34,349 nt of DNA from Verrucomicrobiales bacterium (lineage in GTDB: Bacteria > Verrucomicrobiota > Verrucomicrobiia > Verrucomicrobiales > DEV007): NCBI GenBank assembly GCA_016795505.1, contig JAEUHH010000095.1, positions 1-34,349 of the forward strand. The letters are read 5' to 3'. Of this stretch, positions 4,556 through 24,100 are shown piece by piece. Both the position numbers and the translations under genes were made by a program. Below the pieces are notes generated by a model that made no database searches, had not been told where the DNA came from, and worked only from the letters and a program-made list of their open reading frames with translations. Within the stretch, counting starts at the first letter, position 1, and each line of letters begins with the position of its first letter.

Positions 4556-4594
4556 GCCGCACCTCCTTCCGGAAGGGCCGCCGCTCCGGTACAG

Positions 4595-4638
4595 AAAAAA
4601 CCCGCCAAAATTGGGCTTTCGTGAAGAGGCCTGGCGGG
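4595..4638 (-). terminator. Intrinsic terminator ending the small RNA
   Basis: Minus-strand stem CCCGCCA/TGGCGGG (7 bp, perfect) is followed directly by TTTTTT. The loop is 24 nt, longer than typical, and may fold further. Its placement between promoter and Abi_2 gene means it ends the small RNA and would also attenuate transcription from hsdM into the Abi_2 gene. Confidence 0.55.
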
Positions 4639-4644
4639 TGTGCT
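4595..4644 (-). ncRNA. Predicted ~50-nt small RNA upstream of the Abi_2 gene
   Basis: A promoter and an intrinsic terminator bracket a minus-strand unit that starts at about 4644 (A, seven bases after the -10) and ends in the T-run at 4600-4595. The RNA would form an outer stem CCCGCCA (4638-4632) with TGGCGGG (4607-4601), holding a 24-nt loop with a possible inner GGC/GCC pairing. It ends about 40 bases before the Abi_2 start codon. Position, size and the partner family match the RNA component known for AbiF-type systems. An 80-codon open frame across the same interval (4794-4552) shows no protein features and is probably not coding. Assignment is inference from sequence signals; transcript ends are approximate. 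Confidence 0.55.
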
Positions 4645-4650
4645 GCGCGG

Positions 4651-4679
4651 ATTATCCGGGGCTACGCGATTATTTGCAA
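4651..4679 (-). promoter_or_regulatory. Sigma70-like promoter for the small RNA
   Basis: On the minus strand, a -35 TTGCAA (4679-4674, 4 of 6 consensus) and a -10 GATAAT (4656-4651, 5 of 6) are separated by exactly 17 bp. It lies in the non-coding interval between hsdM and the Abi_2 gene, directly before the hairpin-terminator unit. It could also supply read-through transcription of the Abi_2-hsdS-kinase part of the operon. Confidence 0.55.
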
Positions 4680-4716
4680 GAAAAAAAGACTTCTCCTCGG
4701 ATTGACGGCCAAAAGG

Positions 4717-4749
4717 CAACAGGGTTGCATCGCCAATCCAACCCTGTTG
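4717..4749. repeat. Perfect 11-bp inverted repeat downstream of hsdM
   Basis: CAACAGGGTTG (4717-4727) and CAACCCTGTTG (4739-4749) pair perfectly around an 11-nt loop. It sits 42 bp beyond the hsdM stop codon, upstream of the small-RNA promoter. No T-run follows on the minus strand within a few bases, so it is not a classical terminator; it may protect the hsdM mRNA end or be a protein-binding site. Confidence 0.5.
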
Positions 4750-4790
4750 GTTCGAAGCGGCTCCGTGATTCAAGATGGTGACGGATGCGC

Positions 4791-6311
4791 TCATACCCCC
4801 AGCTCCTCCAAATACCGTTTCATCTCCACCCGCACCGCCGCCAGCTCTCCCTCCAGCGCCACGATCCGCTCCTCCACCGCCTTCAGATCGACCGGTTCCT
4901 CCTCCTCGAAGGTGTCCACGTAGCGGGGAATGTTGAGGTTGTAGTCGTTCTCCTTCAGCTCCTCCCGCGTCGCCCGGTAGGCGTAGCGATCCACGGTCTC
5001 GTAGGCACGGTAGGCGGCGGCGATCTTGTCGAGGTCCTCGCCGCGCAGCTTGTTCTGGTTCGTTCCCTGGGCGAAATCCTCTTTCGCGTCGATGAAGAGC
5101 ACGTCGGTGTGGGTGCGGCCTTTCTTGAAGAGCAGGATGGCCGCCGGGATGCCGGTGCCGAAGAAGAGATTCGCCGGCAGGCCGATGACCGCGTCGAGCA
5201 GGTTCTCCTCGACCAACTTCCTGCGGATCAAGCCCTCCGACGCGCCCCGGAAGAGGACGCCATGGGGCACGACGACGCCGACCCGACCCGATCCGGCCTT
5301 GGCCGTCTCGACCATGTGGAGAAGGAAGGCGTAGTCGCCCTTCGACTTCGGCGGGATGCCGCGCTGGAATCGGCCGAAGCGATCGTTACCCGCGTTCTCC
5401 GCCCCCCATTTGTCGAGACTGAAGGGCGGATTGGCCACGACCACATCGAACTGCATGAGCCGGTCGTCCTCGACCAGCTTGGGATTCTTGATCGTGTCGC
5501 CCCACTCGATGCGGGCGCTGTCGATGCCGTGGAGGAACAGGTTCATGCGGCAGAGGGCGTAGGTGCCGCTGTTGACCTCCTGCCCGTAGATCGAGAAATC
5601 GTCCGAAGGCTGTCCCTTCGGATCGCGGACTTCCTTGGCCACCTTGATCAGGAGCGAGCCCGAGCCGCAGGACGGGTCGCAGATGCGGTCGCCGGGCCGG
5701 GGCGCGACGAGGCGGGCGATCAGCTCCGAGACCTCGGGCGGTGTGAAGAACTCGCCGCCCTTCTTCCCGCTCTCCGAGGCGAAGCGTGAGATGAGGTATT
5801 CGTAGCAGTTCCCGATGACGTCGAGATTGCCGATGCGGGAGGGCCGCAGGTCGAGGCGGGGATCGTGAAAGTCCTGGAGCAGGTGCTTGAGCCGGCCGTT
5901 GCGGTCCTTTGTCTCGCCGAGGCGCTTCTCGTCATTGAAGGAGACGGTGTGGAGCACACCCTCGAGCTTGGCCTTGTTGGCGTCCTCGATATCCCAGAGG
6001 GCCTGGTCGATCCGCTCGCCGAGATTGTCCGCGTCCCGAGCGGCGTAGAGGCTGTCGAAGTCGCAGCCCTCGGGCAGGAGGAATCGCTCGCGCTCCAGCC
6101 GGCGCCGCACCATCTCGGGCTTGCCGGGGAACTGCTTCTCCAGCTCCTCGCGCCGCTCCTTCACCAGATCGGAGAGGAACTTGAGGAAGAGGAAGGTGAG
6201 GATGTAGTCCTTGTATTGGTCGGATGACATCACTCCCCGGAAAGTGTCGCAGGCTTTCCAGACGATGTCGTTGATCTCGTCTTGGTTGGCGGGTCGGGTG
6301 GTGGCTGTCAT
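4791..6311 (-). CDS. hsdM: Type I restriction-modification methyltransferase subunit HsdM
   Basis: A 506-residue adenine-N6 DNA methyltransferase subunit of normal family length. The N-terminal helical HsdM domain covers about residues 10-140, with IVWKACDTFRG and YILTFLFLKFLSD. The methyltransferase core follows: GGEFFTPPEV (185-194), the S-adenosylmethionine motif DPSCGSGS (212-219) and the catalytic NPPF (294-297). With HsdS it would methylate both strands of a bipartite site. The gene lies 67 bp downstream of the PD-(D/E)XK gene. After it come a hairpin and the small-RNA unit rather than hsdS. No hsdR is seen in this operon, so it could be an orphan methylase or could work with the non-standard partners beside it. 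Confidence 0.97.
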   Translation of the reverse strand: MTATTRPANQDEINDIVWKACDTFRGVMSSDQYKDYILTFLFLKFLSDLVKERREELEKQFPGKPEMVRRRLERERFLLPEGCDFDSLYAARDADNLGERIDQALWDIEDANKAKLEGVLHTVSFNDEKRLGETKDRNGRLKHLLQDFHDPRLDLRPSRIGNLDVIGNCYEYLISRFASESGKKGGEFFTPPEVSELIARLVAPRPGDRICDPSCGSGSLLIKVAKEVRDPKGQPSDDFSIYGQEVNSGTYALCRMNLFLHGIDSARIEWGDTIKNPKLVEDDRLMQFDVVVANPPFSLDKWGAENAGNDRFGRFQRGIPPKSKGDYAFLLHMVETAKAGSGRVGVVVPHGVLFRGASEGLIRRKLVEENLLDAVIGLPANLFFGTGIPAAILLFKKGRTHTDVLFIDAKEDFAQGTNQNKLRGEDLDKIAAAYRAYETVDRYAYRATREELKENDYNLNIPRYVDTFEEEEPVDLKAVEERIVALEGELAAVRVEMKRYLEELGV

Positions 6312-6378
6312 GCGCGGGTGAGATTTTGGGGAAAGTTAGCGTGCGGGGTGAGACATTCTCGGATTTCGGGCAGCGGCA

Positions 6379-7182
6379 TTATGGGATGGAGTCGCCGCCC
6401 CCGGAATCGGCAAGGAATCGATCAACGTTTGCCACGACCTGGATCTCGTTCATGTCCATCGTTTCCATCCGGCGAACTCCGAGGCGGGCGGCGAGTTCAT
6501 TGAGGGCGGCGCGAACATCCTGGCGGTTTCCGTCCCAACCGCGAAGGCTGTGGGCGTCTCCGGTGGCGACGTGGGCGCGGGGATCGCGCACGCCTTGCCG
6601 GAAGCGTTCTGCAAATTGGCTCTGAAGAAACCGTTCGTACCGGGGGCTGAACTCGTTCGCCAGGATCCGCAAGCTCTCGCCATCCACGATCACGACCGCA
6701 TCGATCTCGACATACCTCTCAAAGTCGGAAAATCCCAGGTAGTAGCAGTCCTGCATCTCGCCTCCGTGGTCATCGACATCGAAGACGTGCCGCAGCCCGT
6801 AGAGCCCTTTGATCAGGGAATCGGCATTGGCGTGACGCCACACACCCCAGGCGGTCATCCAGACAATCTTGAAGGCGATCGCGGCGTCTGGATGGGCCTC
6901 GATCTGTTCGAGCGCGTCCTCCAGGATGCCGGATAGTACGCTCCGGGGACGAAGCGGCTTAGCCCGGTCGATGATCCTGGTCTGGCGAAGCGCCTCCATC
7001 TCCCGCGCTTTCTCGTTCGGGTCGTCGCCCTTCGATTTCTGTTCGATGAGGTAGAGTTCCTCACCCAGGCGCACTGCCACGTCGGGCCGGCGCGCGTCGC
7101 TCCTCGCGGGGATTCGCTCGACGGTGAACCCGTGTTGCTCAAGGAAGTCGGTCATCTCCGTGATGGCTTGATCTTCGGTCAT
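6379..7182 (-). CDS. PD-(D/E)XK-fold nuclease-like protein, defence operon
   Basis: A 267-residue soluble protein with a restriction-endonuclease-like core near its N-terminus: RRPDVAVRLGEELYLIEQKSK gives Asp34, Glu47 and Lys49 spaced as in PD-(D/E)XK enzymes. The remainder (about residues 60-267) is helical and unrecognised; it contains a strand-like EIDAVVIVDGES. It lies between the half-length specificity gene (24 bp gap) and hsdM (67 bp gap) in the same direction, so it is probably co-transcribed. It may replace the missing HsdR as the cutting subunit, or only bind DNA or nucleic-acid ends. It is far too short to contain the HsdR translocase. Confidence 0.7.
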   Translation of the reverse strand: MTEDQAITEMTDFLEQHGFTVERIPARSDARRPDVAVRLGEELYLIEQKSKGDDPNEKAREMEALRQTRIIDRAKPLRPRSVLSGILEDALEQIEAHPDAAIAFKIVWMTAWGVWRHANADSLIKGLYGLRHVFDVDDHGGEMQDCYYLGFSDFERYVEIDAVVIVDGESLRILANEFSPRYERFLQSQFAERFRQGVRDPRAHVATGDAHSLRGWDGNRQDVRAALNELAARLGVRRMETMDMNEIQVVANVDRFLADSGGGDSIP

Positions 7183-7206
7183 GCAATTTGCGGGTCTGGG
7201 TGAGGG

Positions 7207-7782
7207 CTACTTCGCCAGGATCAAGGCGTCGAGGCGTTGCTGGCGGGCGAGTTCGAGTTCGCGATGCAGGTCGCGCTCGCGACGTTGCGCCTCCGCCATC
7301 GCCACGAGCAGCCGCTGCCGATCGAGGGGCGGCACCGGGACCGGGACGGCGCGCAGATCCTCCACGCGGAGGTAGGGGATGTTGGTTCCTTTGAGGAAGG
7401 CGGCGATCCGCGCCCGCACCAGGCTCTGATTCAGGATCATGGCGAGGAATTCGGGCGACATCCGGTGGGTCGAGTGAAGCCGCAGGGTGTTGAAGGAATT
7501 CTGCACCACGGTGGGCGGCATCTCGCAGGCGAGATGGACGGCGAAGGGCCGCTCGGTCCGGACCATGATGATGACGTCGTCCTTGCGCATCAGCTTATCG
7601 TGGGGCCGGGATCGACCGGGGAGGCGGATGCGGGTGAGCGCCTCGGGGTCGAGGACGCGGCCCTCCTCGACATCCTTTCCCTGGATGACCCGCAGGTCGC
7701 CGTCGGGCGCGCTCTCGACCTTGCTGCGAAAGGGATAACCCGTCAGCACCTCGGCAAGCTCCTGGAGGGGCAATTCCTGCAT
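7207..7782 (-). CDS. Half-length type I specificity subunit (single TRD)
   Basis: A 191-residue protein with one target-recognition domain and one C-terminal helical spacer, so about half the length of a normal HsdS. It begins LPLQELAEVLTGYPFRSKV and contains FLKGTNIPYLRVEDLRAVPVPVPPLDRQ, the usual TRD-to-spacer junction. It ends in a long charged helix RRERDLHRELELARQQRLDALI. Half-S proteins can dimerise to recognise a symmetric site, or pair with another subunit to change specificity. It is the first gene of the minus-strand operon, divergent from the gene at 7942 across a 159-bp intergenic region in which I found no convincing promoter. Confidence 0.85.
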   Translation of the reverse strand: MQELPLQELAEVLTGYPFRSKVESAPDGDLRVIQGKDVEEGRVLDPEALTRIRLPGRSRPHDKLMRKDDVIIMVRTERPFAVHLACEMPPTVVQNSFNTLRLHSTHRMSPEFLAMILNQSLVRARIAAFLKGTNIPYLRVEDLRAVPVPVPPLDRQRLLVAMAEAQRRERDLHRELELARQQRLDALILAK

Positions 7783-7941
7783 GATCGTGAAGATCGGACA
7801 GGGTGTGCGGGAAAACGGCAGTCGTCAAATAAAAAAGAACGAGGATGGCTACTGCGGTTTTTCCGAGATTGCCGTGATGACGCAGCGCGGGGAAACCCTC
7901 TTGCGTCTGCGACTCAATCCTCTTTGGTCGAGGTCACTGCA

Positions 7942-8484
7942 ATGAACAAGGCATTAGAGACCGCCCTGAAAGAGAATCTGACGAAACGCGCGGTCGGAAC
8001 CTCAGCACTGCGAAACCAAGTGCGGAGAGGAGGCATCCGGGCGGTCCATGACTTTCTCTGCGGGCTCCAGCCGAGAGAACTGCGCGCTCTCCGGAGCCGA
8101 AAGGCGTTCCTCGGGTGGCTGGACGCGCGGACGAATGAGATGGAGCGGCAGGTGGGCAAAAGCCACGGCCTGATGTGGGGATCGGCCCGGAAGTCGCTCA
8201 ATCTTTGGATCCGCGACACCGTCTACAATCATCACTTTCGCTCCACCTATGGATTGGATCGGCTGGAGCCGTGGCTGGAGGTCTCGCTCGACAGCCACAC
8301 GGCCGCCTTCATCCGACGGGAATCAGTGACTCACCTGCCCCGCTGGACGACGATCATGGCAGTGACGCCGGCTCTTTCCGGAGTGTATCAGGACGCGGCA
8401 CGCGGGATCGTCGAATCGCCCCGCTTCGCCTATCTGAAGCATCCGGTGCATCTTGATCTGGCGTCTTGGCGGCAAGAGGACTGA
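7942..8484 (+). CDS. Uncharacterised 180-aa protein, divergent from the defence operon
   Basis: A 180-residue, basic, soluble protein with no recognisable family. The start ATG at 7942 is chosen because upstream in-frame sequence runs antisense through the half-S gene. The sequence is helix-rich and Arg-rich, with RAVHDFLCGLQPRELRAL and FLGWLDARTNEMERQVGKSHG, and a Trp-containing KSLNLWIRDTVYNHHF. No enzyme motif is clear. It sits at the border between the defence operon and the replication module, facing away from the former. It could be a regulator or an accessory defence gene; position alone does not decide. Confidence 0.7.
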   Translation: MNKALETALKENLTKRAVGTSALRNQVRRGGIRAVHDFLCGLQPRELRALRSRKAFLGWLDARTNEMERQVGKSHGLMWGSARKSLNLWIRDTVYNHHFRSTYGLDRLEPWLEVSLDSHTAAFIRRESVTHLPRWTTIMAVTPALSGVYQDAARGIVESPRFAYLKHPVHLDLASWRQED

Positions 8485-8839: not shown

Positions 8840-11704
8840 ATGAGCACGCCGGACTTCGATTGGGACGCGGTGCGCGCCCACTATCAAGAGCACCGCAGCT
8901 ACAAGGCAGCGGCGGAGCAGTTCGGACTGACGGTCGCCACGGTCAAGAAGCGTGCCCAGAGGGGACGATGGAGCGAGGTCTCTAAGTCCCGGGGTGACAG
9001 CGGGGGGACAACGATGCCGGAGCATGTCCCCCCAGGGGTGGACATGTCCCCCGGGCCTGCCGCCTCCGGGGGGACGGATCGTGGCACTGAGGGGACCCCG
9101 GCACGGGGGCCGGTCCCCTCCGACGGGTTTTTGTCCCCCGAATCCGTCACTTCTGGGGGGACGGAACCTGGCACCGAGGGGCCAGAATCTACGGCCAATG
9201 TCCCCTCCAGAGGGACGGTAGATTCTCCGGCAGTCTCCCCGACGGATGTCCCCTGCATTCCTGCGTCCATCTGGTCCTGGAACAGGCTGGAGGCGGCCCG
9301 CTACTATCTCAAACACCTCAACTGGGCTGTCCTTCCGCTCTACCCTCCGAATCGCGGCAAGCCCCACGAAAAGGGCAAAAAGCCCCTGATCGAGCGCTGG
9401 CCCGCCCACCGTTCCGCCGATGTGCTCATCGAGGATCTGGAGGAAGCCTTCGCTCCGGGCACGAAATTCAATCTCGGCGTCGTGGTTCGCCCGCCCTTTG
9501 TCGCCGTCGATCTCGACTCCAAGCCCGATCTGGGCGAGTCGGTGCGGGCCTGGCTGGCTGATCGACCGGAACTGGCGACGGTGCCGCGCGAACGCACCGG
9601 CGGCGGGGCCCACCTCCATTTCCGCTGTCCCGATCTTCCCGAGGAGGTGCTCGAATCTGCCAAACCTCTGATGGTCGCCCTGACGCCCAAGATCGGCGCG
9701 GAGCTCTATTCCAACGGCCAAAATCTGGCGCTGGCGCCGTCCATTCACCGCTCCGGCCATCGCTACATCTGGGAGGTGACCGGTCCGATTCCCGAGGTCA
9801 GTTGGGCACTGCTTTGCGACTGGTTCGGATTCCAGATCCCGGTGCGAAAGAACGCGAAAAAAAAGAAATCCCCGGACTGGAAGACGGCCTACGAAGGCGA
9901 TGTTCACTCCCTCGACATTCTGGGACTGTTTCGCGAAGCCGGCCGGCTCGGCGATCTCCTCGACGCCGACACGGAAAAGTGGGCGGTGCGCTGTCCCTGG
10001 GAAACCGAGCATTCCACCGAACCTTCGGCCGAACCCGGTTCCGACACGGTCGTCTTTGCCGGAACTCCGCCGGGTTTCAAGTGCCTGCACGCCCACTGCG
10101 ATGGACGCGGTCTCGCGGAGGTCTGCCAATGGTTCGAGGCGAGGGAGGCGGGTGTGATCGACCGTCATTGCACCACGCTGCGCGGCGATCTCGCGGAAAA
10201 GGCGGTCGAAAACTCCCAACCGGTGTCCGCCTGGGGCCTGGAGGAGCCGAAGGATCCCACGACGTGGCTCTTGCGCCGCTTCGGCGAGGCATTCGAAACC
10301 GCGATGGACCGCAGCACGGGTGAGCTCGTCATCGTGGATTTCAACTTCCATTACTGGGCCGGACGCTTTGCCTTCGAGACGCTCGTCGTCTACGAGCCCT
10401 GTGCCGATCAATTCTATTGCTATGACGACAGTCGCGGCCTGTGGCGCTGGATCACCGAACCGGACCTCCGTCAGCGTATCGCCGCCTACCTGCTGGAGCA
10501 GGCGCGAAAGTTCAACCAGTCCATCCTCAAGCAACGTCGCTCGCAGGATCGTCTCGCCAGCATGGTCACGATGCTGCGGGCTGAGACCGAACGCCGCGAT
10601 GCCTTTCGCCGCGACGGCAAGGTCATCCACCTTGCCAACGGCATGCTGCACCTCGACGCCCATCCGCCCGAGCTGCGGGCCTTCTCCCCCCACTACTTCA
10701 GCCTCCACCAGTGTCCCGTTCCCTTCGACGCGGCGGCGCTGTGTCCCCGCTTTCTGGGCGAGCTGGTCCTCTCCTCGATGTCGCCAGAAGATGCCGGGCT
10801 GCTCCAACTGATGGGCGGCCTCTACCTGACCGGCCGGAACAACTGGCAGAAGATGCTGATCCTCTCCGGCACCGGCGGCGCGGGCAAGGGTACCATCGCC
10901 AGAATCGTCCAGGGCCTGGTGGGCATGGAGAACGTCAAGCAGCTGCGCACCCGGCTGCTCGACGAGCGCTTCGAACTGGACAACCTCGACCAGGCTTCCC
11001 TGCTGGTCGGCTCGGATGTCGACGGCGACTTCCTCTCCTGCCGGGGCGCCAAGGTCATCAAGGCCCTCACCGGTGGCGATCCGCTCACCATGGAAACCAA
11101 GGGCGGTCGGAAGCGCGACATCCTCGGAGAACACAACGTCCTGATCACCTGCAACGACCGACTCCGGGTCCGGCTCGACGGTGACGAGAGCGCCTGGAAA
11201 CGCCGCCTTCTCCTCATTGAGTTCCACCGATCCGCCGGGCGACAGATCGACGACTTCGACCGGATCCTCATGGAGGAAGAAGGCAGCGGCATCCTCAACT
11301 GGTTTCTCATCGGCGCGCTGCGCCTGCGTCGCTTGTCCGAATCGGGCCGGCGCTTTCCCCTCACCGAGGCGCAGGAGGACCGCATCGACGCGCTGCTGGC
11401 AGAGAGCGATTCCCTGCGGCTCTTCGTGAAACGCCGGATCGAGCGCGAGGAGGACGCCTCGCTGACCACCGAGGAGATCCTCATCGCCTACGAGAACTTC
11501 TGCGCCAACCAGAACTGGACCGCCCTGCCCAAGCACCGCTTCGAGCAGCAACTCGGCCCTCTCATGATGGAGTTCCACCGCGCCGGAAAGCGCAATGACA
11601 TCTCGCGGGGAACCTCGATCAAGCGCGGCTTCAAACACGTCCGGCTCGGCGACCCGCAGCCGGAAAGTACGCCCGCCCCCGACTTTCCCGATGAATTGCC
11701 ATGA
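8840..11704 (+). CDS. Primase-polymerase / SF3 (D5-like) helicase fusion replication protein
   Basis: A 954-residue replication initiator-type protein. Residues 10-45 form an HTH (SYKAAAEQFGLTVATVKKR). Residues about 48-145 are a low-complexity Gly/Thr/Pro linker. A bifunctional primase/polymerase (archaeo-eukaryotic primase) domain follows at about 150-320, with VAVDLDSKPDL holding the acidic pair and GGGAHLHF the histidine motif. The C-terminal half is a P4/D5-type superfamily 3 helicase with Walker A GTGGAGKGT (677-685, Lys683), Walker B-like LLVGSDVDGDF and sensor NVLITCND. Such fusions prime and unwind DNA in phages, satellites and plasmids. Its TGA overlaps the polymerase ATG (ATGA, 11701-11704), so the two are coupled. 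Confidence 0.95.
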   Translation: MSTPDFDWDAVRAHYQEHRSYKAAAEQFGLTVATVKKRAQRGRWSEVSKSRGDSGGTTMPEHVPPGVDMSPGPAASGGTDRGTEGTPARGPVPSDGFLSPESVTSGGTEPGTEGPESTANVPSRGTVDSPAVSPTDVPCIPASIWSWNRLEAARYYLKHLNWAVLPLYPPNRGKPHEKGKKPLIERWPAHRSADVLIEDLEEAFAPGTKFNLGVVVRPPFVAVDLDSKPDLGESVRAWLADRPELATVPRERTGGGAHLHFRCPDLPEEVLESAKPLMVALTPKIGAELYSNGQNLALAPSIHRSGHRYIWEVTGPIPEVSWALLCDWFGFQIPVRKNAKKKKSPDWKTAYEGDVHSLDILGLFREAGRLGDLLDADTEKWAVRCPWETEHSTEPSAEPGSDTVVFAGTPPGFKCLHAHCDGRGLAEVCQWFEAREAGVIDRHCTTLRGDLAEKAVENSQPVSAWGLEEPKDPTTWLLRRFGEAFETAMDRSTGELVIVDFNFHYWAGRFAFETLVVYEPCADQFYCYDDSRGLWRWITEPDLRQRIAAYLLEQARKFNQSILKQRRSQDRLASMVTMLRAETERRDAFRRDGKVIHLANGMLHLDAHPPELRAFSPHYFSLHQCPVPFDAAALCPRFLGELVLSSMSPEDAGLLQLMGGLYLTGRNNWQKMLILSGTGGAGKGTIARIVQGLVGMENVKQLRTRLLDERFELDNLDQASLLVGSDVDGDFLSCRGAKVIKALTGGDPLTMETKGGRKRDILGEHNVLITCNDRLRVRLDGDESAWKRRLLLIEFHRSAGRQIDDFDRILMEEEGSGILNWFLIGALRLRRLSESGRRFPLTEAQEDRIDALLAESDSLRLFVKRRIEREEDASLTTEEILIAYENFCANQNWTALPKHRFEQQLGPLMMEFHRAGKRNDISRGTSIKRGFKHVRLGDPQPESTPAPDFPDELP
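9002..9253. repeat. Array of GGGGAC/GTCCCC motifs inside the primase linker
   Basis: About eleven copies of GGGAC or its complement GTCCC lie within 250 bp, most as GGGGACn or TGTCCCC in both orientations. Two 27-bp segments (9068-9094 and 9155-9181) are near-identical direct repeats, 87 bp apart. The encoded protein is a low-complexity linker with a repeated SGGT-x2-GTEG. Density and both-strand arrangement resemble protein-binding arrays, but a simple codon-repeat expansion in a linker is the alternative. Confidence 0.6.
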
Positions 11705-14700
11705 ACGATACCATGTCCCGCTCCTTCGCCCATCGCCCTGACTCCCCCCATCGCCCCGGCCGATTGCTGCTGAGAGTGGACGTTCGCGACCTCGAAGAGC
11801 GCCTCGGGGCACTCCAGGCGTCTCTTCTCCGTGGCGCGCCCTATTCGGAAACAACCACATCCGGCGAGTCCGTTTCCCCCGTCCGAACAGTCCGTGACCC
11901 GATAAGCCGGTCCGTCTCGGACGTTTCGGACGGCCTCGAAGTTACTTACGCGCGCACGCGGGAAGAAATCAAAAAGAGACAGGGGTACGATCCGGGGGGA
12001 CAAGTGGTTGGCGAAAAAAATGATTTTCCGGCGACGGTAAGGAGTGGCGCGAATGCCGTCCGAAACGTCCGGGGGTGTCCGACGGTCCCCCAGGTTTTCT
12101 GCACCGCGAAGGCGGAGCTCGCCTGCATCGTCGATGACCTGATCCTCTCCGAGAACGGCTGGATCGCCCTAGACCTCGAAACCTACGGTAACCGCAAAGG
12201 CGACGGGCTCGATCCCTGGCGCGGCGACATCCGCCTCCTCACCGTCTGCCGCGAGGGTGGTCCGATCTGGATGATCGACCTCATGGCCATCGGCTACGAC
12301 CTCGGTCCTCTGGCGGCCATCCTCGAAGTCGCCACCGTCATCGCCCATAACGCCAAGTTCGACGGCCTCTGGCTGCGGGTGAAGTGCGGGCTGCGCCTGC
12401 CCAAGGTTTTCTGCACGCTGACGGCCGCTCGGCTCCTCGCCGCCGGCACCAAACCCGGCAACAACCTCGACCAGTGCCTGGAGCGCTTCCTCGGGATCGA
12501 GCCGGGCAAGGACCAGAGCCGCTCCGACTGGGGCTCGATGCTGCTGACCGAGGAGCAGTTCGCCTACGCGGCCCGCGACGTGGCCCATCTCCACGACCTG
12601 GCCAAGGTGCTGGAGACCGGCATCGAAGAAGCCGCGTTGGAGCGCGTGTGGACGCTGGAGAGCGCACTGCTGCCGCGGGTGGTGGAGATGGAAGCCGTCG
12701 GTATCCGGGTGGACGTGGAGAAGCTCAGGAAAATCGCAGCGGACGCCAAGGCCCATGCCGCGAAAGCCTCCACCGATTTGCGCGAAGCCCTGGGAAGCCC
12801 CGGACTCAATCCCGGCAGCCCGGCCCAGCTCCTCGCCGCGCTCCGGTCGCAGGGTATCGCGCTGGAATCCACCGCCGAAGAAGCGCTCAAGGCGGCCGAT
12901 GACGGGCGCATCATTCCCCTGATCCTCGCCCACCGCGAGGCCAGCAAACGCGCCCAACAAGCCGAGACGCTCATCGAGCACGTGAAGACCGACGGACGCA
13001 TCCACGCCCGCTTCGAGCCGACCGGCACCGCCACCGGGCGCTTCTCCTCGAAGGAGCCGAACCTCCAGAACGTGGGACGGGGCGAACTGCGCGAGGCTTT
13101 TGTTCCCGCCCCAGGCCACCGCTTCATCGTCGCGGACTACTCCCAGGTGGAGCTCCGCGCCGCCGCCGCCATCGCCGGCGAGACGAAGATGATCGAGGCG
13201 TATCGGGCGGGGGCAGACCTTCACCGAAAAACGGCATCCACAGTCTTGGGCAAATCCGAGGAAGCGGTCTCCAAGGCCGACAGGCAGTTGGCCAAGGCCT
13301 GCTTCTCGGGCGATACCGAAGTGCTAACGCCGAACGGTTGGGTGCGCTTCGACGCCTACGACGGGATCGCTCCGGTTGCGCAATTCGAACTGCCGAAGAA
13401 CCTGTGCTGGAACCCGCCGAAGAGGCATGGCAACCGCTGGGGACATTCGACGGGCAAGACTTCTTGGGATGGCTACGGCGAGATCCAGTTCGTCGAACCC
13501 CTGGCGATTCAGTCGTTCGATGATCGTGAGCTGTTCCACCACGAGGACCGCAACACGGATCTCCAGGTGACCGGCGATCACGAGATCGTCTTCATCACGA
13601 ACTCCAAGAATCCGGCAAAGCTTCCCGCTATCGATGTGGTTCCGGGCAATTGCCGTCATCTAGTCGCTGCGGGGTATCTACGCCGCTTGGCGTCGAGCGA
13701 CAAACTGGAAGCCTTCACTCGCGCTCTGGCAATGGTCGTCGCGGACGGCAACTTCGCTTCGCCGCGTTGTGTTCGCTTTGGATTCTCAAAGCGTCGCAAG
13801 GTTCAAAGATGCTTGGAGCTTCTCGGGAAGCTAAGCATTTCGCCCCAGATCTCCGAGAAGGGCAGGGTCACCAGCATCCGGGTCAATGATCCTGATTGGG
13901 TCGAATGCTTGCTTTCGTGGATCACCCTCGGCAAGGACCTTTCCTGGCGATGCCTTACGGAGTTGCCTGCCGATGTCTATCTCGATGAGGCCGCACACTG
14001 GGACTCGCATCTCAACGAAGGACGGAAACGAAATCGCGCCCAGTTCTGCACAACTTCCAGACAAACCGCCGAGGTGATGCAGGCCATGGCGGCCACTAGC
14101 GGTCATCCGTCTTTGCTAAGGCACACGCCATCAAGCAAGGCCCGACATTCCGACCTCTGGCATCTCTCTTACGTTCTCGACGGCCCGAGCGTCTGGCGGG
14201 CATCATGGTCACTTAAACCCACCGGTCGGCGGGAGCGGGTTTGGTGCGTGCAGGTTCCTTCCGGCGCGATCCTGATCCGGCGCAACGGCAAGGTCTGCGT
14301 CCAAGGGAACTGCAACTTCGGCCTCATCTACGGCCAGAGCGCCCCCGGCCTCGTGCGCTACGCGGCTTCCTCCTACGGCGTGACGCTGCAAGACGATCAG
14401 GCCAAGGAGATCCGGACCGCATTCTTCCGCACCTACGGCCACCTCCGCCAGTGGCACGGCGAGAGCCACCAGCAGGCCGAACGGGGCGTGACCGAAGTGC
14501 GGACCCGCCTGGGTCGCCGCCGCCTCATCCCCGACACCTCCACGGAATGGGAGCGCTTCACCGCCCTGGTGAACACGCCCGTTCAGGGCGGCTGTGCCGA
14601 CGGGATGAAGCAGGCCATCGTCACCCTGGCCGAACGCCTGCCCAACACGGCCAGGCTCATCTCCACCGTCCACGACGAGGTCATCGTCGAAGTGCCCGAG

Positions 14701-14826
14701 ACCGATGCCGAGCAAGTCTGCGAATTGGTGGCCGCGACGATGAAGGAAGCGATGGAAGCCCTCTTCCCCGAGGTGCCCATCGAGGTCGAGGCCGGAACCT
14801 GCAACCACTGGGGCGAGAAAGGATGA
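11701..14826 (+). CDS. Family A DNA polymerase with proofreading domain and an intein
   Basis: A 1041-residue precursor of a DNA polymerase I-type enzyme; 704 residues remain after removal of the intein. Residues 1-140 are poorly conserved. The DEDD 3'-5' exonuclease domain follows, with ALDLETYG (Asp158, Glu160), HNAKFD and YAARDV. No 5'-3' exonuclease domain is present. The polymerase domain has motif A ADYSQVELR (Asp479), motif B RQLAKA + CNFGLIYG (split by the intein between Ala533 and Cys871) and motif C VHDEV (His991, Asp992). It is ATGA-coupled to the primase-helicase upstream and to the next gene downstream, making a self-contained replication set of phage or plasmid type. It is not the chromosomal repair enzyme, judging by its context and missing domain. 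Confidence 0.95.
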   Translation: MNDTMSRSFAHRPDSPHRPGRLLLRVDVRDLEERLGALQASLLRGAPYSETTTSGESVSPVRTVRDPISRSVSDVSDGLEVTYARTREEIKKRQGYDPGGQVVGEKNDFPATVRSGANAVRNVRGCPTVPQVFCTAKAELACIVDDLILSENGWIALDLETYGNRKGDGLDPWRGDIRLLTVCREGGPIWMIDLMAIGYDLGPLAAILEVATVIAHNAKFDGLWLRVKCGLRLPKVFCTLTAARLLAAGTKPGNNLDQCLERFLGIEPGKDQSRSDWGSMLLTEEQFAYAARDVAHLHDLAKVLETGIEEAALERVWTLESALLPRVVEMEAVGIRVDVEKLRKIAADAKAHAAKASTDLREALGSPGLNPGSPAQLLAALRSQGIALESTAEEALKAADDGRIIPLILAHREASKRAQQAETLIEHVKTDGRIHARFEPTGTATGRFSSKEPNLQNVGRGELREAFVPAPGHRFIVADYSQVELRAAAAIAGETKMIEAYRAGADLHRKTASTVLGKSEEAVSKADRQLAKACFSGDTEVLTPNGWVRFDAYDGIAPVAQFELPKNLCWNPPKRHGNRWGHSTGKTSWDGYGEIQFVEPLAIQSFDDRELFHHEDRNTDLQVTGDHEIVFITNSKNPAKLPAIDVVPGNCRHLVAAGYLRRLASSDKLEAFTRALAMVVADGNFASPRCVRFGFSKRRKVQRCLELLGKLSISPQISEKGRVTSIRVNDPDWVECLLSWITLGKDLSWRCLTELPADVYLDEAAHWDSHLNEGRKRNRAQFCTTSRQTAEVMQAMAATSGHPSLLRHTPSSKARHSDLWHLSYVLDGPSVWRASWSLKPTGRRERVWCVQVPSGAILIRRNGKVCVQGNCNFGLIYGQSAPGLVRYAASSYGVTLQDDQAKEIRTAFFRTYGHLRQWHGESHQQAERGVTEVRTRLGRRRLIPDTSTEWERFTALVNTPVQGGCADGMKQAIVTLAERLPNTARLISTVHDEVIVEVPETDAEQVCELVAATMKEAMEALFPEVPIEVEAGTCNHWGEKG
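11879..12081. repeat. GTCCG repeats with a 17-bp perfect inverted repeat in the polymerase 5' region
   Basis: CGGACGTTTCGGACGGC (11918-11934) and its exact complement GCCGTCCGAAACGTCCG (12055-12071) lie 120 bp apart. A third, direct copy with two changes is at 11879-11894. GTCCG units recur at 9-10 bp spacing (12058, 12067, 12077). They encode the unconserved N-terminus, giving VRTVRD, SDVSDG and VRNVRG. The spacing near one helical turn fits repeated protein binding. Confidence 0.6.
13300..14310 (+). other. Intein with LAGLIDADG-type homing domain in polymerase motif B
   Basis: Codons 534-870 (337 aa) interrupt the O-helix motif. Removing them restores RQLAKA-CNFGLIYGQ. The intein begins CFSGDTEVLTPNGW (block A) and has block B at VTGDHEIVF with the Thr and His. 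The C-terminal blocks F/G are VWCVQVPSGAILIRRNGKV and VQGN, with Cys as the first extein residue. A LAGLIDADG-like motif ALAMVVADGNF (Asp682) and a second degenerate copy near YLDEAAHWDS indicate a homing endonuclease domain, active or decaying. The usual penultimate His before Asn is Gly here. Position in the catalytic motif is typical of polymerase inteins. Confidence 0.93.
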
Positions 14827-18590: not shown

Positions 18591-18980
18591 ATGAAACGTC
18601 TCTGGCAACTAGTAACCCTTCTGATGTTGGCACTGATCGTGCCTGCATCGATGTGCTGCCATTTGGTGGAAATGAGCTCCTCGGAAGCGAGCGGCTGCTG
18701 TCCCACTCACGAACAGGGTGGCGATGACGAGCGAAATCCGCTTTCCTGCCCGAGCGACTCGATTTCCCATAGCCAGGTTCCGGAGACAGTTTTCCTGCCT
18801 GCCGTCCTTCTTGCCGAGCACCTGATCCTCGTCCCAGGTGCGGCGAACCCAAAGGATTCCGGGGATCTGGATGTCGACCGGTCCTCCTTTCTGACCGAGG
18901 CACCTCCAGAGTTGACTCCGACCTGGGCCTTCGTCCATCGCGCTTCCCTCCCGGCCCGCGCCCCTTCGGCGCTGGCCTGA
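18591..18980 (+). CDS. Small secreted Cys/His protein, first gene of efflux operon 1
   Basis: A 129-residue exported protein with a signal peptide (MKRLWQLVTLLMLALIVPAS). Cysteine and histidine clusters follow: MCCHLVEM near the cleavage region and SGCCPTHEQGGDDE. The rest is Pro- and Ser-rich without a known domain. Small secreted proteins of this type often open czc-like operons and are thought to sense or buffer metal in the periplasm (CzcI-like). Its counterpart in operon 2 is at 24862. A 142-bp gap separates it from the TolC-like gene. Function is inferred from position and metal-ligand residues. Confidence 0.75.
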   Translation: MKRLWQLVTLLMLALIVPASMCCHLVEMSSSEASGCCPTHEQGGDDERNPLSCPSDSISHSQVPETVFLPAVLLAEHLILVPGAANPKDSGDLDVDRSSFLTEAPPELTPTWAFVHRASLPARAPSALA

Positions 18981-19122
18981 GACTCCCCGCCCTGTTGCTT
19001 GGATCCGTCCGGGTGGCTGTGAATGTGACGGAGTCCGCCTGCCGCCCAGCTCTCGGGTGGCCCACCCACGTCTCCGGTCGAGACGATTGGTTCATGTCGT
19101 CAGTCCAAAATTCACCGCCACC

Positions 19123-20397
19123 ATGCGAACTTCATTTTTTTCCATCACCCTCCTATCGGCCATCGCGACGCTTTCAGCGGCGGACGAGAAGCCGAAAGCC
19201 ATCTCTGTGTCCGACCTTGTTTCCCGTGCGCTCGAGGCCAACCCGGAGGTGCGCTTCTACGAAGCAGAAATCGCCCACGCAAGGGCGACACGGACCACGG
19301 CTGGCCGCCCATCGAATCCTGAACTGAGTCTGGAGATAGGAAGGAAACGCGTTTCCTCCTCCGATGCCCGCTCGAACGGTCTCGCCTTTTCGGCGGAGCT
19401 GGCCCAACCCTTGGAGTGGCCGGGGCGCCTGGGACTCCGCAAAGCCATTGCGAATCGGGACATCACTCTTGCCGAGCTGGGGCTCGAACGTTTCCGTTTC
19501 CACCTTGCCTCACGAGTGCGGGTGCTGGCCACCACCCTTGCCGCACAACAAGACATTTCGGCCGCTGCCGAAGAAGTGGCGGCTCGCCATTCAGCCCTTC
19601 GGGATGTTCTCGTCCAACGGGAACCGGCGGGCATCGCCCCCCAATTGGAAGTCGTCACGGTCGAGGCAGCCGCTCTGGTCGCGGAATCACGTGCTGCCAC
19701 CGCAGCGGTGGCCGTTCAGTCAGCGCTCCTCGAGTTGAACCAGCTGATGGGCCGGAGACCGGACTCGCCGATAGCGGTCGAGCGATCGTCATTCTCCCTC
19801 AAGGCGGTTCCTTCGCTGAACCAGCTGCTCTACGCTGCGATGGAGAATCACTATGACCTTCGCATCCTCCACGCGGAGCTCGAGCAACAGGGGTTCAAGG
19901 TGGAGCTGGCCAAAAACGAACGCTACCCCGCCATCGTCGTCGGACCTTTCGTGGAACGCGAGAACGGCCTCGAGGACGAAACGACCGGAGGCATCGGTAT
20001 TTCGCTGCCGTTACCTTTCTGGAAGTCGGGCAAGGCGGAGGTGACCGCGGCTGAAGCCCGCCTGACGCAGGCTCAGGCCAGCCTCGGCGTGGCGCAACGG
20101 GAGGTGGAACGTCAGGTGACGGAATCCACGCTGATGTTCAAAACCCAACAGTCGCGCGCCTCCCTCTGGAAAGGTGACGCGGTCGCCAAATTCGGAGAAG
20201 CGGCCGACTTGGCGGATCGACACTTCCGACTCGGAGCCGTTCCCATGGGCACCTTCGTGGAGATCCAGGACAAATACCTCGAAGCGGTCGAGGCCGTCAA
20301 CGAGGCCCGAGCCCAGACGCTCGAGGCGGCGCTCAAGCTAGAGGAACTCACCGGTGCCCCCGGGAGTCTCGTCCTTCTCAATTCATCGAAACCCTGA
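19123..20397 (+). CDS. TolC-family outer membrane channel of efflux operon 1
   Basis: A 424-residue outer membrane factor of the CzcC/CusC type. The start ATG at 19123 gives a clean signal peptide (MRTSFFSITLLSAIATLSAADE); an in-frame ATG 66 bp upstream would place a charged non-leader segment in front of it. Two outer-membrane-efflux repeats are seen as long amphipathic helices: SVSDLVSRALEANPEVRFYE with NPELSLEIG, and NQLLYAAMENHYDLRI with GISLPLPFWKSGKAEV. It would form the exit duct for the RND pump encoded two genes downstream. No lipobox is present. It is 12 bp from the next gene. Confidence 0.93.
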   Translation: MRTSFFSITLLSAIATLSAADEKPKAISVSDLVSRALEANPEVRFYEAEIAHARATRTTAGRPSNPELSLEIGRKRVSSSDARSNGLAFSAELAQPLEWPGRLGLRKAIANRDITLAELGLERFRFHLASRVRVLATTLAAQQDISAAAEEVAARHSALRDVLVQREPAGIAPQLEVVTVEAAALVAESRAATAAVAVQSALLELNQLMGRRPDSPIAVERSSFSLKAVPSLNQLLYAAMENHYDLRILHAELEQQGFKVELAKNERYPAIVVGPFVERENGLEDETTGGIGISLPLPFWKSGKAEVTAAEARLTQAQASLGVAQREVERQVTESTLMFKTQQSRASLWKGDAVAKFGEAADLADRHFRLGAVPMGTFVEIQDKYLEAVEAVNEARAQTLEAALKLEELTGAPGSLVLLNSSKP

Positions 20398-20409
20398 CTC
20401 TTCCCCATC

Positions 20410-21108
20410 ATGAAACAAGCCCTACTCATTCTCATGCTGCCCATTGCCGCAGCGCTCAACTCCTGTAGCGACAGCGCCGCAAGTCCATCGCCCGAGACCG
20501 AATCCGCACCGGAGAACGGTGCCCAGTACAAAGAAGGCAAGGGTGTCACACTCACGCCACTCATGGCCCAATCCATCCAACTGAAAACGGCTGAAGTGCA
20601 GGATGAGGTGATCGCCCACGCGTATTCCGCCACCCTGCAAGCCACCCGGATCGGAAACGAGGCGAGCGGTTGGTTGACCGAAGAGCAGGCCTCCCAGATC
20701 CAGACCGGCATGATGGTGGAATTGGGCTCCAGCAAAGGACGCGTCCTGCGAATGGAAAAATCACCCTTCGTTGCTCTGGGTGACTACGAAGTCATCGTCA
20801 CCACAGACGAGACGCTCCAGCCGGGAGAGGCTTTGAACGCCACCTTCCGATTCCCCGCCGGGGATCCCGTGACATCGATTCCGAAATCGGCGCTTCTGAC
20901 CACGGCGGAGGGAACTTTCGTGTATGCGCAGAACGATGAATACTTCCTTCGCACTCCCGTCCAGGTCGGTGCCGTCAACGATGACCACGTCGAAATCATC
21001 GATGGACTCTATACGGGGGACGTGGTGGTCACGACACCGGTGATGTCGCTCTGGCTGGCAGAGCTTCAGATCTTGCGGGGAGGCAAGGCTTGTACCTGCG
21101 GTCACTGA
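20410..21108 (+). CDS. Short lipoprotein periplasmic adaptor of efflux operon 1
   Basis: A 232-residue lipoprotein: signal MKQALLILMLPIAAALNSC with Cys19 as the lipobox cysteine. It resembles only the second half of a membrane-fusion protein, the beta-barrel and membrane-proximal parts (SIPKSALLTTAEGTFVYAQN, then VQVGAVNDDHVEIIDGLYTGDVVVT). The lipoyl and alpha-hairpin parts are missing, so it is about half the usual length. It ends GGKACTCGH, a cysteine motif also found in the small proteins that close both operons. It sits between the channel and pump genes, 6 bp before the pump. It may be a reduced adaptor or work with another full-length adaptor. Confidence 0.85.
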   Translation: MKQALLILMLPIAAALNSCSDSAASPSPETESAPENGAQYKEGKGVTLTPLMAQSIQLKTAEVQDEVIAHAYSATLQATRIGNEASGWLTEEQASQIQTGMMVELGSSKGRVLRMEKSPFVALGDYEVIVTTDETLQPGEALNATFRFPAGDPVTSIPKSALLTTAEGTFVYAQNDEYFLRTPVQVGAVNDDHVEIIDGLYTGDVVVTTPVMSLWLAELQILRGGKACTCGH

Positions 21109-21114
21109 GACTCC

Positions 21115-24100
21115 ATGTTGACTTCCCTCATCACCCTCGCGATGCGGCAACGCGGTGCCGTGCTCCTCGGCATGCTGTTGCTCATCGCCTTCGGATTGTG
21201 GTCGGCACTGAACCTGCCCATCGATGCCGTACCCGACATCACCAATCCGCAGGTGCAGATCAACACGGCCGTCGATGCGCTTGCGCCGGAGGAGATCGAG
21301 AAGCTCGTGACCTTTCCCATCGAGAGCGAGATGGCAGGCCTGCCGCGAATGGTGGAGCTGCGTTCCCTGTCCAAGTTCGGCCTCTCCCAGGTAACGATGA
21401 CCTTTGAGGACGGGGTCGATCTCTATCTCACGCGCCAGCTCGTCACGGAACGTCTCCAAGGCGTCCTCGACGAACTGCCGCCGGAGGTGAGCCCCAAGCT
21501 CGCACCAGTCGCCACCGGGCTCGGCGAGATCTTTTATTACAGCCTGGACTATCTCGAAGATGCTCCGCACAAACCCGCGACCCGGGAGGAGCAGCTCATG
21601 GCTCTCGCGCAGATCCAGGAATACCAAGTGAAGCCCCTGCTCCGGGGCACGCCAGGGGTGGCGGAGGTGAACACGAGCGGCGGCTATCAGAAGCAGATCG
21701 TCATTCAACCCGATCCTCCCCGCCTCGCCGCGCGAGGTCTCTCACTTGATATGCTCGCCGAGATCGTGGAGCAGAACACACGCAACGCGGGTGGCGGATA
21801 CATCGAGATTGGCGGAGAGCAGCTCATCGTCCGCGCCACGAGCCGGGTAGACAACATTGACCAGATCCTCTCCATCCCCTTGAAATTTGCGGGTGCGGTG
21901 GAACCCGTCCTTCTCAGTGAGGTGGCCACCGTCACCATCGGCAGCGCCTTTCGGACCGGGGCTTCCACCGATGACGGCAAGGAAGCGATCATCGGCGCGA
22001 CGATCATGCTGGCCGGAGAGAATTCCCGGCTCGTGGCCGAGTCCGTGCGCGGCAAGTTGGTCGAGGTTCAGGAGAAACTGCCGCAGGGTGTCGTCATCAG
22101 GCCCCTGTACGACCGCAGCAATCTCGTCAGCCGCACCATCGCCACCGTCGAGAAGAACCTGACCGAGGGAGCGTTGCTCGTCGTCATCGTGCTCTTCGCC
22201 TTGCTCGGCAACTTCCGCGCCGCCTTCATCGTTGCACTGGTGATCCCGCTCTCCATGCTCTTCGCGATGACCGGGATGGTGCGATGGCACATCAGCGGCA
22301 ATCTCATGAGCCTGGGTGCGATTGACTTCGGTCTCATCATTGATGGGGCTGTGGTGATGGTGGAGAATATCGTGCGCCACCTCGGCGAGCGTCAGCACGC
22401 CCTAGGCCGCCGCCTCACCGTCAGTGAACGGACCGAGGAAGTGCTGAAATCCGCCAAGGAGGTAGCCAACCCGATGTTCTTCGGGGTCCTCATCATCACC
22501 GTCGTCTACGTGCCCATCCTCGCGCTCCAGGGCATCGAAGGAAAAATGTTCAAACCCATGGCCCTCGTCGTCATGCTCGCGCTCGGCGGTTCCCTCGTCC
22601 TCGCCGTCACGCTGATGCCCGTTCTGTGCTCCTACCTGCTCGGCGGCAAGATTCAGGAGAAGGACAACTGGCTGGTCACCCTGACAAAGCGACTCTACAC
22701 GCCGCTGCTCCGCTTCGGATTGCGCTTCCGCTTTGTCGTCGTCATCATCATGCTCGGGTTGTTCGGCTCGTCGATCTGGGTGAGTTCCCGACTCGGATCG
22801 GAGTTCATCCCCCAGCTTGACGAAGGCGATTTCGCCTTTCAACTCATCCGCAGCAGCAGCGCCGGTCTTTCCTCATCCCTGGAACTGCAAAAGCAGAGCG
22901 AAGCCATCATCCGCCGCGACTTTCCCGAGGTGAAGGAGATCTTCTCACGCATCGGCACCGCCGAGGTGGCGAGCGATCCGATGAATCCCAACGTCTCGGA
23001 CACCTACCTGATGCTCAATCCGCGCGACCAGTGGCGCGAGGAGGACGGCAGGACCATCACGAAGGAGCGGCTCGGCGAGATCATGCGCAAGACACTCCTC
23101 GATCAGGTGCCCGGTCAAAGCATCCTCGTCACCCAGCCCATCCAGATGCGATTCAACGAGATCATGGCCGGTGCCCGAGCCGACCTCGTCTGCAAGATCT
23201 TCGGTGACAGCTACGATGAACTGGAACGGCTCGCCGGGGAAGTGCGCACCGTCATCGGTACGATTCCGGGAGGAGGCGAGACCGAGTTCGACAGCATCGG
23301 CAAGAATCCCATGATCGAGATCCAGCCCGACCGCGAGGCCATGCGTCGGTTCAACGTCCACGCCGATGAGTTGAACTCCCTCATCGAAACCGCCCTGGCC
23401 GGGACCGAGGTCGGCATGCTCATCGAAGGAAACCGCCGCAGCCCCATCGTCGTCCGGCTCGCCGAGAATCATCGGGCAGACCTCGAGGGGCTCAAGCGAC
23501 TCGCCTTGCGCACCGATGATGGCGGGATGCTGTCGCTCGGGCAGGTGGCAAAGATCGTCCTCGTGCCCCAGCCGGTGCAGATCGCCCGAGAGAATACGCA
23601 ACGTCGCGTCAGCATCCTCATCAACGTCCGGGGCCGGGACACGGAAGGATTTGTCGAGGAAGCGACCCGGGAGATCCGCAACAAGGTCCAGTTTCCCGAC
23701 GGATATTTCTTCGAGTTTGGCGGCCAGTTCAAGAACTTGCAGGAGGCCAAGGCACGCCTCCTCATCGTCGTGCCTCTGGCGCTGGGCCTGATCTTCGTCC
23801 TCATCTTCCTCAGTTTCGGCTCCCTCAAACAGGCCGCTCTCATCTTCACCTGCGTCCCGCTCGCGGTCACGGGTGGGATCTTCGCCCTGTACGTGCGGGG
23901 AATGCCCTTCACCATCAGCGCGGCCGTCGGGTTCATCGCACTGAGTGGCATCGCCGTGCTGAATGGCATCATGCTCATCAGCTTCATCAACCAGCTCCGC
24001 AGCGAAGGGCGTGAAGTCCGCGAGGCCGTCGTCGAGGGCACCCTCACACGCCTGCGCCCCAAGCTCATGACCGCCCTGGTCGCCAGCCTTGGCTTCGTCC

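What the first reader, a model, noticed from the sequence alone, without database searches (positions are those of the whole stretch)
13300..14310. Intein in motif B of a mobile-element DNA polymerase, with Gly-Asn at the splice end
The 337-aa intein splits the catalytic O-helix exactly between RQLAKA and CNFGLIYG, so the enzyme is inactive until splicing. The penultimate residue is Gly rather than the common His, which can slow or condition splicing. This might make replication dependent on a cell signal.
Basis: partly seen in the sequence, partly recalled or inferred. Interest (0 to 1): 0.6.

Follow-up and report, generated by a model that had tools for sequence, protein, structure and literature searches.

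The report
Self-splicing insert in element's DNA polymerase
A Verrucomicrobia mobile element carries a DNA polymerase interrupted at its catalytic helix by a self-splicing protein insert (an intein) of a known phage-associated family, and the supposedly odd Gly-Asn ending is simply what nearly all members of that family have.

Summary
Window 13300-14310 encodes a 337-aa insert, in frame, between RQLAKA and CNFGLIYG of a family A DNA polymerase (11701-14826). It is a bifunctional intein: full-length similarity to phage inteins, a confident model matching solved inteins with LAGLIDADG endonucleases (best Z 24), both endonuclease acids kept, and intein-free relatives in Verrucomicrobia.

Penultimate Gly is the rule here: 24 of 25 aligned homologues end Gly-Asn. 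The published Bethlehem RDF intein has Gly there, splices completely, and is slowed when Gly becomes His; an RDF intein from a related phage is a full-length match to this family. Gly-Asn is no sign of slow or conditional splicing. Dependence on a cell signal is unsupported, though not excluded.

The site is not new: Lactococcus phage KSY1 polymerase (already annotated intein-containing) and one IMG/VR contig have inteins at the same bond. Among genomes sampled, only the window's genome carries this intein (1 of 74 in its family; 1 of 387 in its phylum).

A recombination footprint of about 130 bp around the site separates it from its closest intein-free relative; its direction is unresolved. 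Verdict: real, ordinary, new member of a known kind.

The parts
11701..14826 (+). Family A DNA polymerase gene (3'-5' exonuclease plus polymerase) with in-frame intein
   Evidence: 1041-aa ORF; PF00476 E 6.7e-75 and PF01612 E 5.6e-18
11701..13299 (+). N-extein, ending RQLAKA
   Evidence: Translation; aligns to intein-free relatives
13300..14310 (+). Intein, 337 aa, Cys1 to Gly336-Asn337
   Evidence: Full-length matches to phage inteins; fold match to inteins
14311..14826 (+). C-extein, starting CNFGLIYG (Cys at +1), with stop codon
   Evidence: Translation
13282..13299 (+). Left half of motif B (RQLAKA)
14311..14334 (+). Right half of motif B (CNFGLIYG)
13300..13344 (+). Splicing block A (CFSGDTEVLTPNGWV)
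   Evidence: Cys1 in 25 of 25 rows
13561..13596 (+). Splicing block B region (LQVTGDHEIVFI)
   Evidence: His94 in 25 of 25 rows
13699..13746 (+). First LAGLIDADG helix, catalytic-position Asp149
   Evidence: Helix 134-149 in model; Asp in 24 of 25 rows
13969..14004 (+). Second LAGLIDADG helix, catalytic-position Asp235
   Evidence: Helix 224-235 in model; Asp in 24 of 25 rows
14233..14310 (+). Splicing blocks F and G (ERVWCVQVPSGAILIRRNGKVCVQGN)
   Evidence: Cys316 in 25 of 25, Gly336 in 24 of 25 rows
13207..13299 (.). Left part of recombination footprint relative to G028
   Evidence: 59% identity in the 132-bp tract against 93% elsewhere
14311..14349 (.). Right part of recombination footprint relative to G028
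8840..11704 (+). Prim-Pol/D5-type primase-helicase gene, overlapping the start of polA; same replication module
   Evidence: PF09250, PF19263, PF08706; upstream of polA in many relatives

Best explanation
A class 1 type, bifunctional intein (Hint splicing domain with an inserted two-motif LAGLIDADG homing endonuclease) of a phage-associated family sits in the catalytic O-helix of a family A polymerase that belongs to a Prim-Pol/PolA replication module of a Verrucomicrobia mobile element. The precursor is expected to be an inactive polymerase. Cys1, His94 and Cys+1 make and move the thioester, Asn337 cyclises, and the exteins join to RQLAKACNFGLIYG, an intact motif B. The endonuclease copies the intein into empty motif B alleles. 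Penultimate Gly is the normal state of this family and does not by itself slow splicing. Shown: anatomy, family, predicted fold, intein-free relatives, recombination footprint. Inferred: splicing, precursor inactivity, endonuclease activity.
For: Boundaries and frame. End-to-end matches to phage inteins in NrdA, primase, NAMPT and polymerase. Identical insertion bond in KSY1 polymerase, annotated 'intein-containing DNA polymerase I', and in IMG/VR contig L041, 45% identical over the intein. AlphaFold2 model pLDDT 85.5, pTM 0.86, matching TliVMA intein Z 24.0 over 300 residues, PI-PfuI Z 21.8, PI-SceI Z 20.9 and AceL NrdHF splicing domain Z 19.1 at 1.9 A. Cys1, His94 and Cys316 in 25 of 25, Asp149 and Asp235 in 24 of 25, penultimate Gly in 24 of 25. 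Published Gly-to-His test in an RDF intein (PMC5050341, passages); the RDF intein of phage BPBiebs31 matches the family profile end to end, 125.5 bits. Lower GC (59% against 66-67%) and lower third-position GC than any of 17 blocks of the neighbouring coding sequence.
Against: No splicing or cleavage was measured. The intein lacks both histidines usually credited with helping Asn cyclisation (G:6 and F:13), so which residue helps is unknown. The RDF intein tested in print is only distantly similar. Pfam does not recognise the splicing domain in this sequence.
Confidence: 0.93

Rival explanations
1. Conditional intein: splicing in motif B is gated by a cell signal (redox, metal, temperature) so that element replication waits for it.
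For: Insertion at the catalytic helix; 10 Cys in the intein, with Cys1 and block F Cys316 invariant in 25 of 25 homologues, so a disulphide latch is chemically possible; disulphide-bonded precursor forms are reported for the RDF G316H mutant (PMC5050341, passage).
Against: Gly is the family norm (24 of 25) and the tested Gly intein splices completely; Cys is the second commonest residue at F:4 in inteins (PMC4031507, passage).
Confidence: 0.05
2. Splicing-dead relic: the intein is present but no longer removed, and the polymerase function is lost.
For: The host has another polA on contig C100, so loss of this one could be tolerated.
Against: Class 1 nucleophiles and block B His are kept, the frame is open, both endonuclease acids are kept, and the exteins are 90.5% and 95.3% identical in protein to an intein-free copy.
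Confidence: 0.04
3. Assembly artefact: the intein was joined to this polymerase by misassembly of a metagenome contig.
For: Single copy; intein absent from every other genome searched; different GC.
Against: Both ends fall exactly at the bond used in KSY1 and L041, in frame on both sides and with the Cys+1 that splicing needs; a chance join would not give that.
Confidence: 0.02

Closest known systems
Lactococcus phage KSY1 DNA polymerase intein (NC_009817, KSY1p096)
   Same: Same host family, identical insertion bond (KA|CNF), same intein family, Gly-Asn end, Cys+1
   Different: Phage rather than bacterial element; 26% identity; 303 aa; both endonuclease acid positions changed in the alignment, whereas here they are kept
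Intein of IMG/VR contig 3300034072_000910 (L041)
   Same: Same bond in a family A polymerase, 45% identity, shared extra segment after block A
   Different: Viral contig of unknown host; polymerase exteins only about 34% identical
Mycobacteriophage RDF intein (Bethlehem, tested in PMC5050341; RDF intein of BPBiebs31 gp52 compared here)
   Same: Full-length family match, penultimate Gly, block F Cys, terminal Asn
   Different: Sits in a metallophosphoesterase/RDF; Ser+1; distant in sequence
AceL NrdHF class 3 split intein (6zgq)
   Same: Best sequence match in PDB to the family profile (E 1.8e-11) and closest splicing-domain-only fold (Z 19.1)
   Different: Class 3 and split; the window intein has Cys1 and lacks the W and T of the WCT motif
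PI-SceI / TliVMA inteins
   Same: Same overall architecture: Hint domain plus two-motif LAGLIDADG endonuclease
   Different: Different host protein (VMA ATPase); about 12-16% sequence identity

Membership tests
Class 1 intein | Nucleophile at position 1 | tested here: met
   Cys1; 25 of 25 homologues
Class 1 intein | Block B Thr and His | tested here: met
   Thr91 and His94
Class 1 intein | C-terminal Asn followed by Cys/Ser/Thr at +1 | tested here: met
   Asn337 | Cys
Class 1 intein | Penultimate His (common, not required) | tested here: not met
   Gly336; Gly in 24 of 25 homologues
Class 1 intein | Hint fold | tested here: met
   Predicted model matches solved inteins, Z up to 24
Class 1 intein | Autocatalytic excision with ligation | not testable with these tools
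   Needs expression
LAGLIDADG homing endonuclease | Two LAGLIDADG helices with catalytic acids | tested here: met
   Helices 134-149 and 224-235, Asp149 and Asp235; Foldseek matches I-DmoI and I-Tsp061I
LAGLIDADG homing endonuclease | Cuts the empty allele | not testable with these tools
   Needs cleavage assay
Class 3 intein | No nucleophile at position 1 | tested here: not met
   Cys1 present
Class 3 intein | W-C-T motif (B:12, F:4, G:5) | tested here: not met
   Ile96, Cys316, Gln335: only the Cys is there
PolA motif B insertion allele shared with KSY1 | Same bond in motif B | tested here: met
   RQLAKA|CNFGLIYG against RTIAKA|CNFSLLYG

The most novel reading that the evidence does not exclude
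This intein family (Gly at G:6, no His at F:13, invariant Cys1 together with invariant block F Cys) does its C-terminal cleavage with a different set of residues from the textbook pair of histidines, and the Cys1-Cys316 pair can act as a reversible redox latch that holds an element polymerase inactive until the cell interior is reducing.
Probability: 0.08. Interest if true: 0.55.

Novelty: new member of a known kind. Interest (0 to 1): 0.28.

Why it matters
It places a phage-associated intein in a bacterial mobile-element polymerase and shows that Gly-Asn ends are a family trait rather than a warning of conditional splicing. The family is a convenient set for asking how Asn cyclisation proceeds without either usual histidine. 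The very close intein-free relative, with a footprint centred on the site, is a natural pair for studying intein gain or loss.

Tried and rejected
Class 3 membership: considered because the best PDB sequence match is a class 3 intein and Cys316 is invariant; rejected because Cys1 is present and two of the three WCT positions are not.

Homing as the proven cause of the footprint: considered, then downgraded. The drop in identity around the junction is largest for window against G028 (34 points, the largest of 78 pairs), but pairs of intein-free copies also drop there (L067-L087 23 points, L066-L087 15 points), and the G028 copy (L066) is closer to L073 inside the tract (85%) than outside (76%), so G028 may be the copy that changed.

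More carriers: a genome-contig scan with the two closest inteins confirmed none; phylum and family searches found only the window's genome. A viral-contig scan for the host polymerase found no relative. The first structure model (4 sequences) was poor, pLDDT 63, and was replaced by a 12-sequence model. phmmer of the intein alone against PDB sequences found nothing.

Counts: the 25-row table holds the window, L041, 14 of the 15 phage/plasmid loci that I chose and fetched (L038 dropped, its match covers 28 residues only), L005, and 8 of the 13 loci (L053, L055 and L056 repeat L041, KSY1 and PTm1; L061 and L065 look the same as L060 and L064 at both ends). The one row not ending in Gly-Asn is L057, which ends His-Gln. 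The phage loci were picked by hand out of 246 matching records, for diversity of host protein. In one search my script cut L041 one residue short (its row there reads 337 aa and 'QG'); one search shows the full 338 aa ending Gly-Asn.

Papers: for PMC5050341, PMC4031507, PMC7664689, PMC6302109, PMC3888941 and PMC3359363 I saw passages only. Full-text searches listed no title that I recognised as describing an intein in PolA motif B or in Verrucomicrobia; most listed papers were not opened and the library is partial, so this is weak.

Full report
What is there. The window is one whole contig (34,349 bp) of a 120-contig assembly, G000:C1. Gene 11701-14826 encodes a 1041-aa protein with a 3'-5' exonuclease domain and a family A polymerase domain that Pfam finds in two stretches. 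At 13300-14310 lie 337 residues from Cys1 to Gly336-Asn337. The flanks read RQLAKA | CNFGLIYG, so the insert divides motif B, the O-helix; by recalled E. coli numbering the bond lies one residue after Lys758.

It is an intein. tblastn of the insert against phage records aligned residues 1-337 end to end with proteins annotated as ribonucleotide reductase, primase and others (183 records at E<=0.01; 101 cover at least 80%; best E 8e-21). Pfam sees almost nothing in this sequence alone, but among 17 aligned family members 3 match Intein_splicing and 5 match LAGLIDADG_3. A profile of the 17 finds the AceL NrdHF intein in the PDB at E 1.8e-11. A model built with 12 sequences (pLDDT 85.5, pTM 0.86) matches TliVMA intein at Z 24.0 over 300 residues, PI-PfuI at 21.8, PI-SceI at 20.9, and AceL NrdHF at 19.1 with 1.9 A over 144 residues. 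The middle carries two LAGLIDADG repeats; the acids Asp149 and Asp235 are kept.

The Gly-Asn end is ordinary for its family. In a 25-row alignment, Cys1, block B His94 and block F Cys316 are present in 25 of 25; the penultimate residue is Gly in 24 of 25 and the last residue Asn in 24 of 25; the exception, L057, ends His-Gln. None of the 25 has His at position 325 (F:13 by my count from Cys316 as F:4). Kelley and colleagues (PMC5050341, passages) tested the Bethlehem RDF intein, which has Gly there: it spliced completely, and changing Gly316 to His caused precursor to build up. Bethlehem itself was not held, but the RDF intein of phage BPBiebs31, which interrupts the same kind of protein, scores 125.5 bits end to end against the 25-row profile and ends Leu-Thr-Gly-Asn. 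The inference from Gly to slow or conditional splicing therefore has no support, and the one test found points the other way.

The site is known. Phage KSY1 polymerase has an intein at the same bond (RTIAKA | CNFSLLYG) and is annotated 'intein-containing DNA polymerase I'. A junction pattern scan of IMG/VR found two contigs: KSY1 itself and L041, whose 338-aa intein at the same bond is 45% identical and shares an extra segment after block A. Other members of the family interrupt family A polymerases elsewhere: L005 a few residues further on in motif B, and L054, L062 and L064 upstream. L027 is annotated as a polymerase but its N-flank gave no Pfam hit, and L057 and L063 gave only weak ones.

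The host element. The polymerase follows a Prim-Pol/D5 primase-helicase (8840-11704). A genome-contig scan with the extein found 29 loci, all titled as Verrucomicrobia or groups within it (Akkermansiaceae, Verrucomicrobiaceae, Prosthecobacter, Akkermansia), some with two or more copies in one assembly. All 20 junctions inspected are without an intein; the other loci end before the junction or were not in that list. The module is about 92% identical in DNA to that of G028, a different genus, while chromosomal polA is about 71% identical, so the module has moved between hosts. The genome keeps a separate polA without an intein on contig C100. The intein was found only in the window's own genome: 1 of 288 and 1 of 387 sampled genomes of the phylum, 1 of 74 of the family.

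A footprint at the site. Against G028 the polymerase is 93.4% identical outside, but 59.1% within, a 132-bp tract from 93 bp before to 39 bp after the junction; the lowest 120-bp stretch is centred 42 bp before it. I chose the tract limits after seeing the profile. This is the largest local drop of 78 pairs. It fits co-conversion during homing from a donor with Cys at +1, as in G002 (100% identical over the first 30 bp after the junction; the only one of the 20 intein-free junctions with Cys at +1). It also fits the opposite: two site types exist among intein-free copies, and G028 is closer to L073 within the tract (85%) than outside (76%), so G028 may have been the recipient. I report recombination around the site and leave its direction open.

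Mechanism. Class 1 splicing is the best reading (Cys1, Thr91/His94, Asn337, Cys+1). The class 3 route is not supported: Cys1 is present and the W and T of the WCT motif are not. The polymerase should be inactive before splicing because motif B is broken; that is inference. The endonuclease is probably active, as both acids are kept, unlike KSY1; that too is inference.

Verdict. The proposed control by a cell signal gets no support from the Gly-Asn end. What remains open is which residue replaces the two usual histidines in Asn cyclisation, and whether the invariant Cys1-Cys316 pair has any redox role.

Noticed in passing
L064, C-terminal flank 6003-7997: The same polymerase gene appears to hold a second intein: Pfam Intein_splicing (E 1.4e-10) and LAGLIDADG_3 (E 6.3e-9) in the flank after the first intein.
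   Followed up: no
window 18591-24258 and L076, L081: A small ORF followed by an outer-membrane efflux gene and an AcrB-type pump lies after the polymerase module in the window and also in two other Verrucomicrobia loci, so efflux genes may be cargo of this element.
   Followed up: partly
window 2328-7782 (minus strand): Type I restriction-modification genes (HsdM, two HsdS-like ORFs) lie beside the replication module; HsdM and HsdS relatives are also near the module in G034 (L046).
   Followed up: no
L066, L067, L073 against L072, L074, L082, L087, L088: Two allele types of the roughly 130-bp stretch around motif B exist among intein-free copies (SISKxQRQTAKA-V/I-SFG and VTKxDRQLAKA-V/C-NFG types), as if this stretch is exchanged between elements.
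   Followed up: partly
L057 2011-2928: A family member that ends His-Gln instead of Gly-Asn, the only exception in 25.
   Followed up: no
L088 around 6425-7146: The polymerase reading frame in this relative matches in several separate pieces, suggesting a damaged copy or sequencing errors.
   Followed up: no
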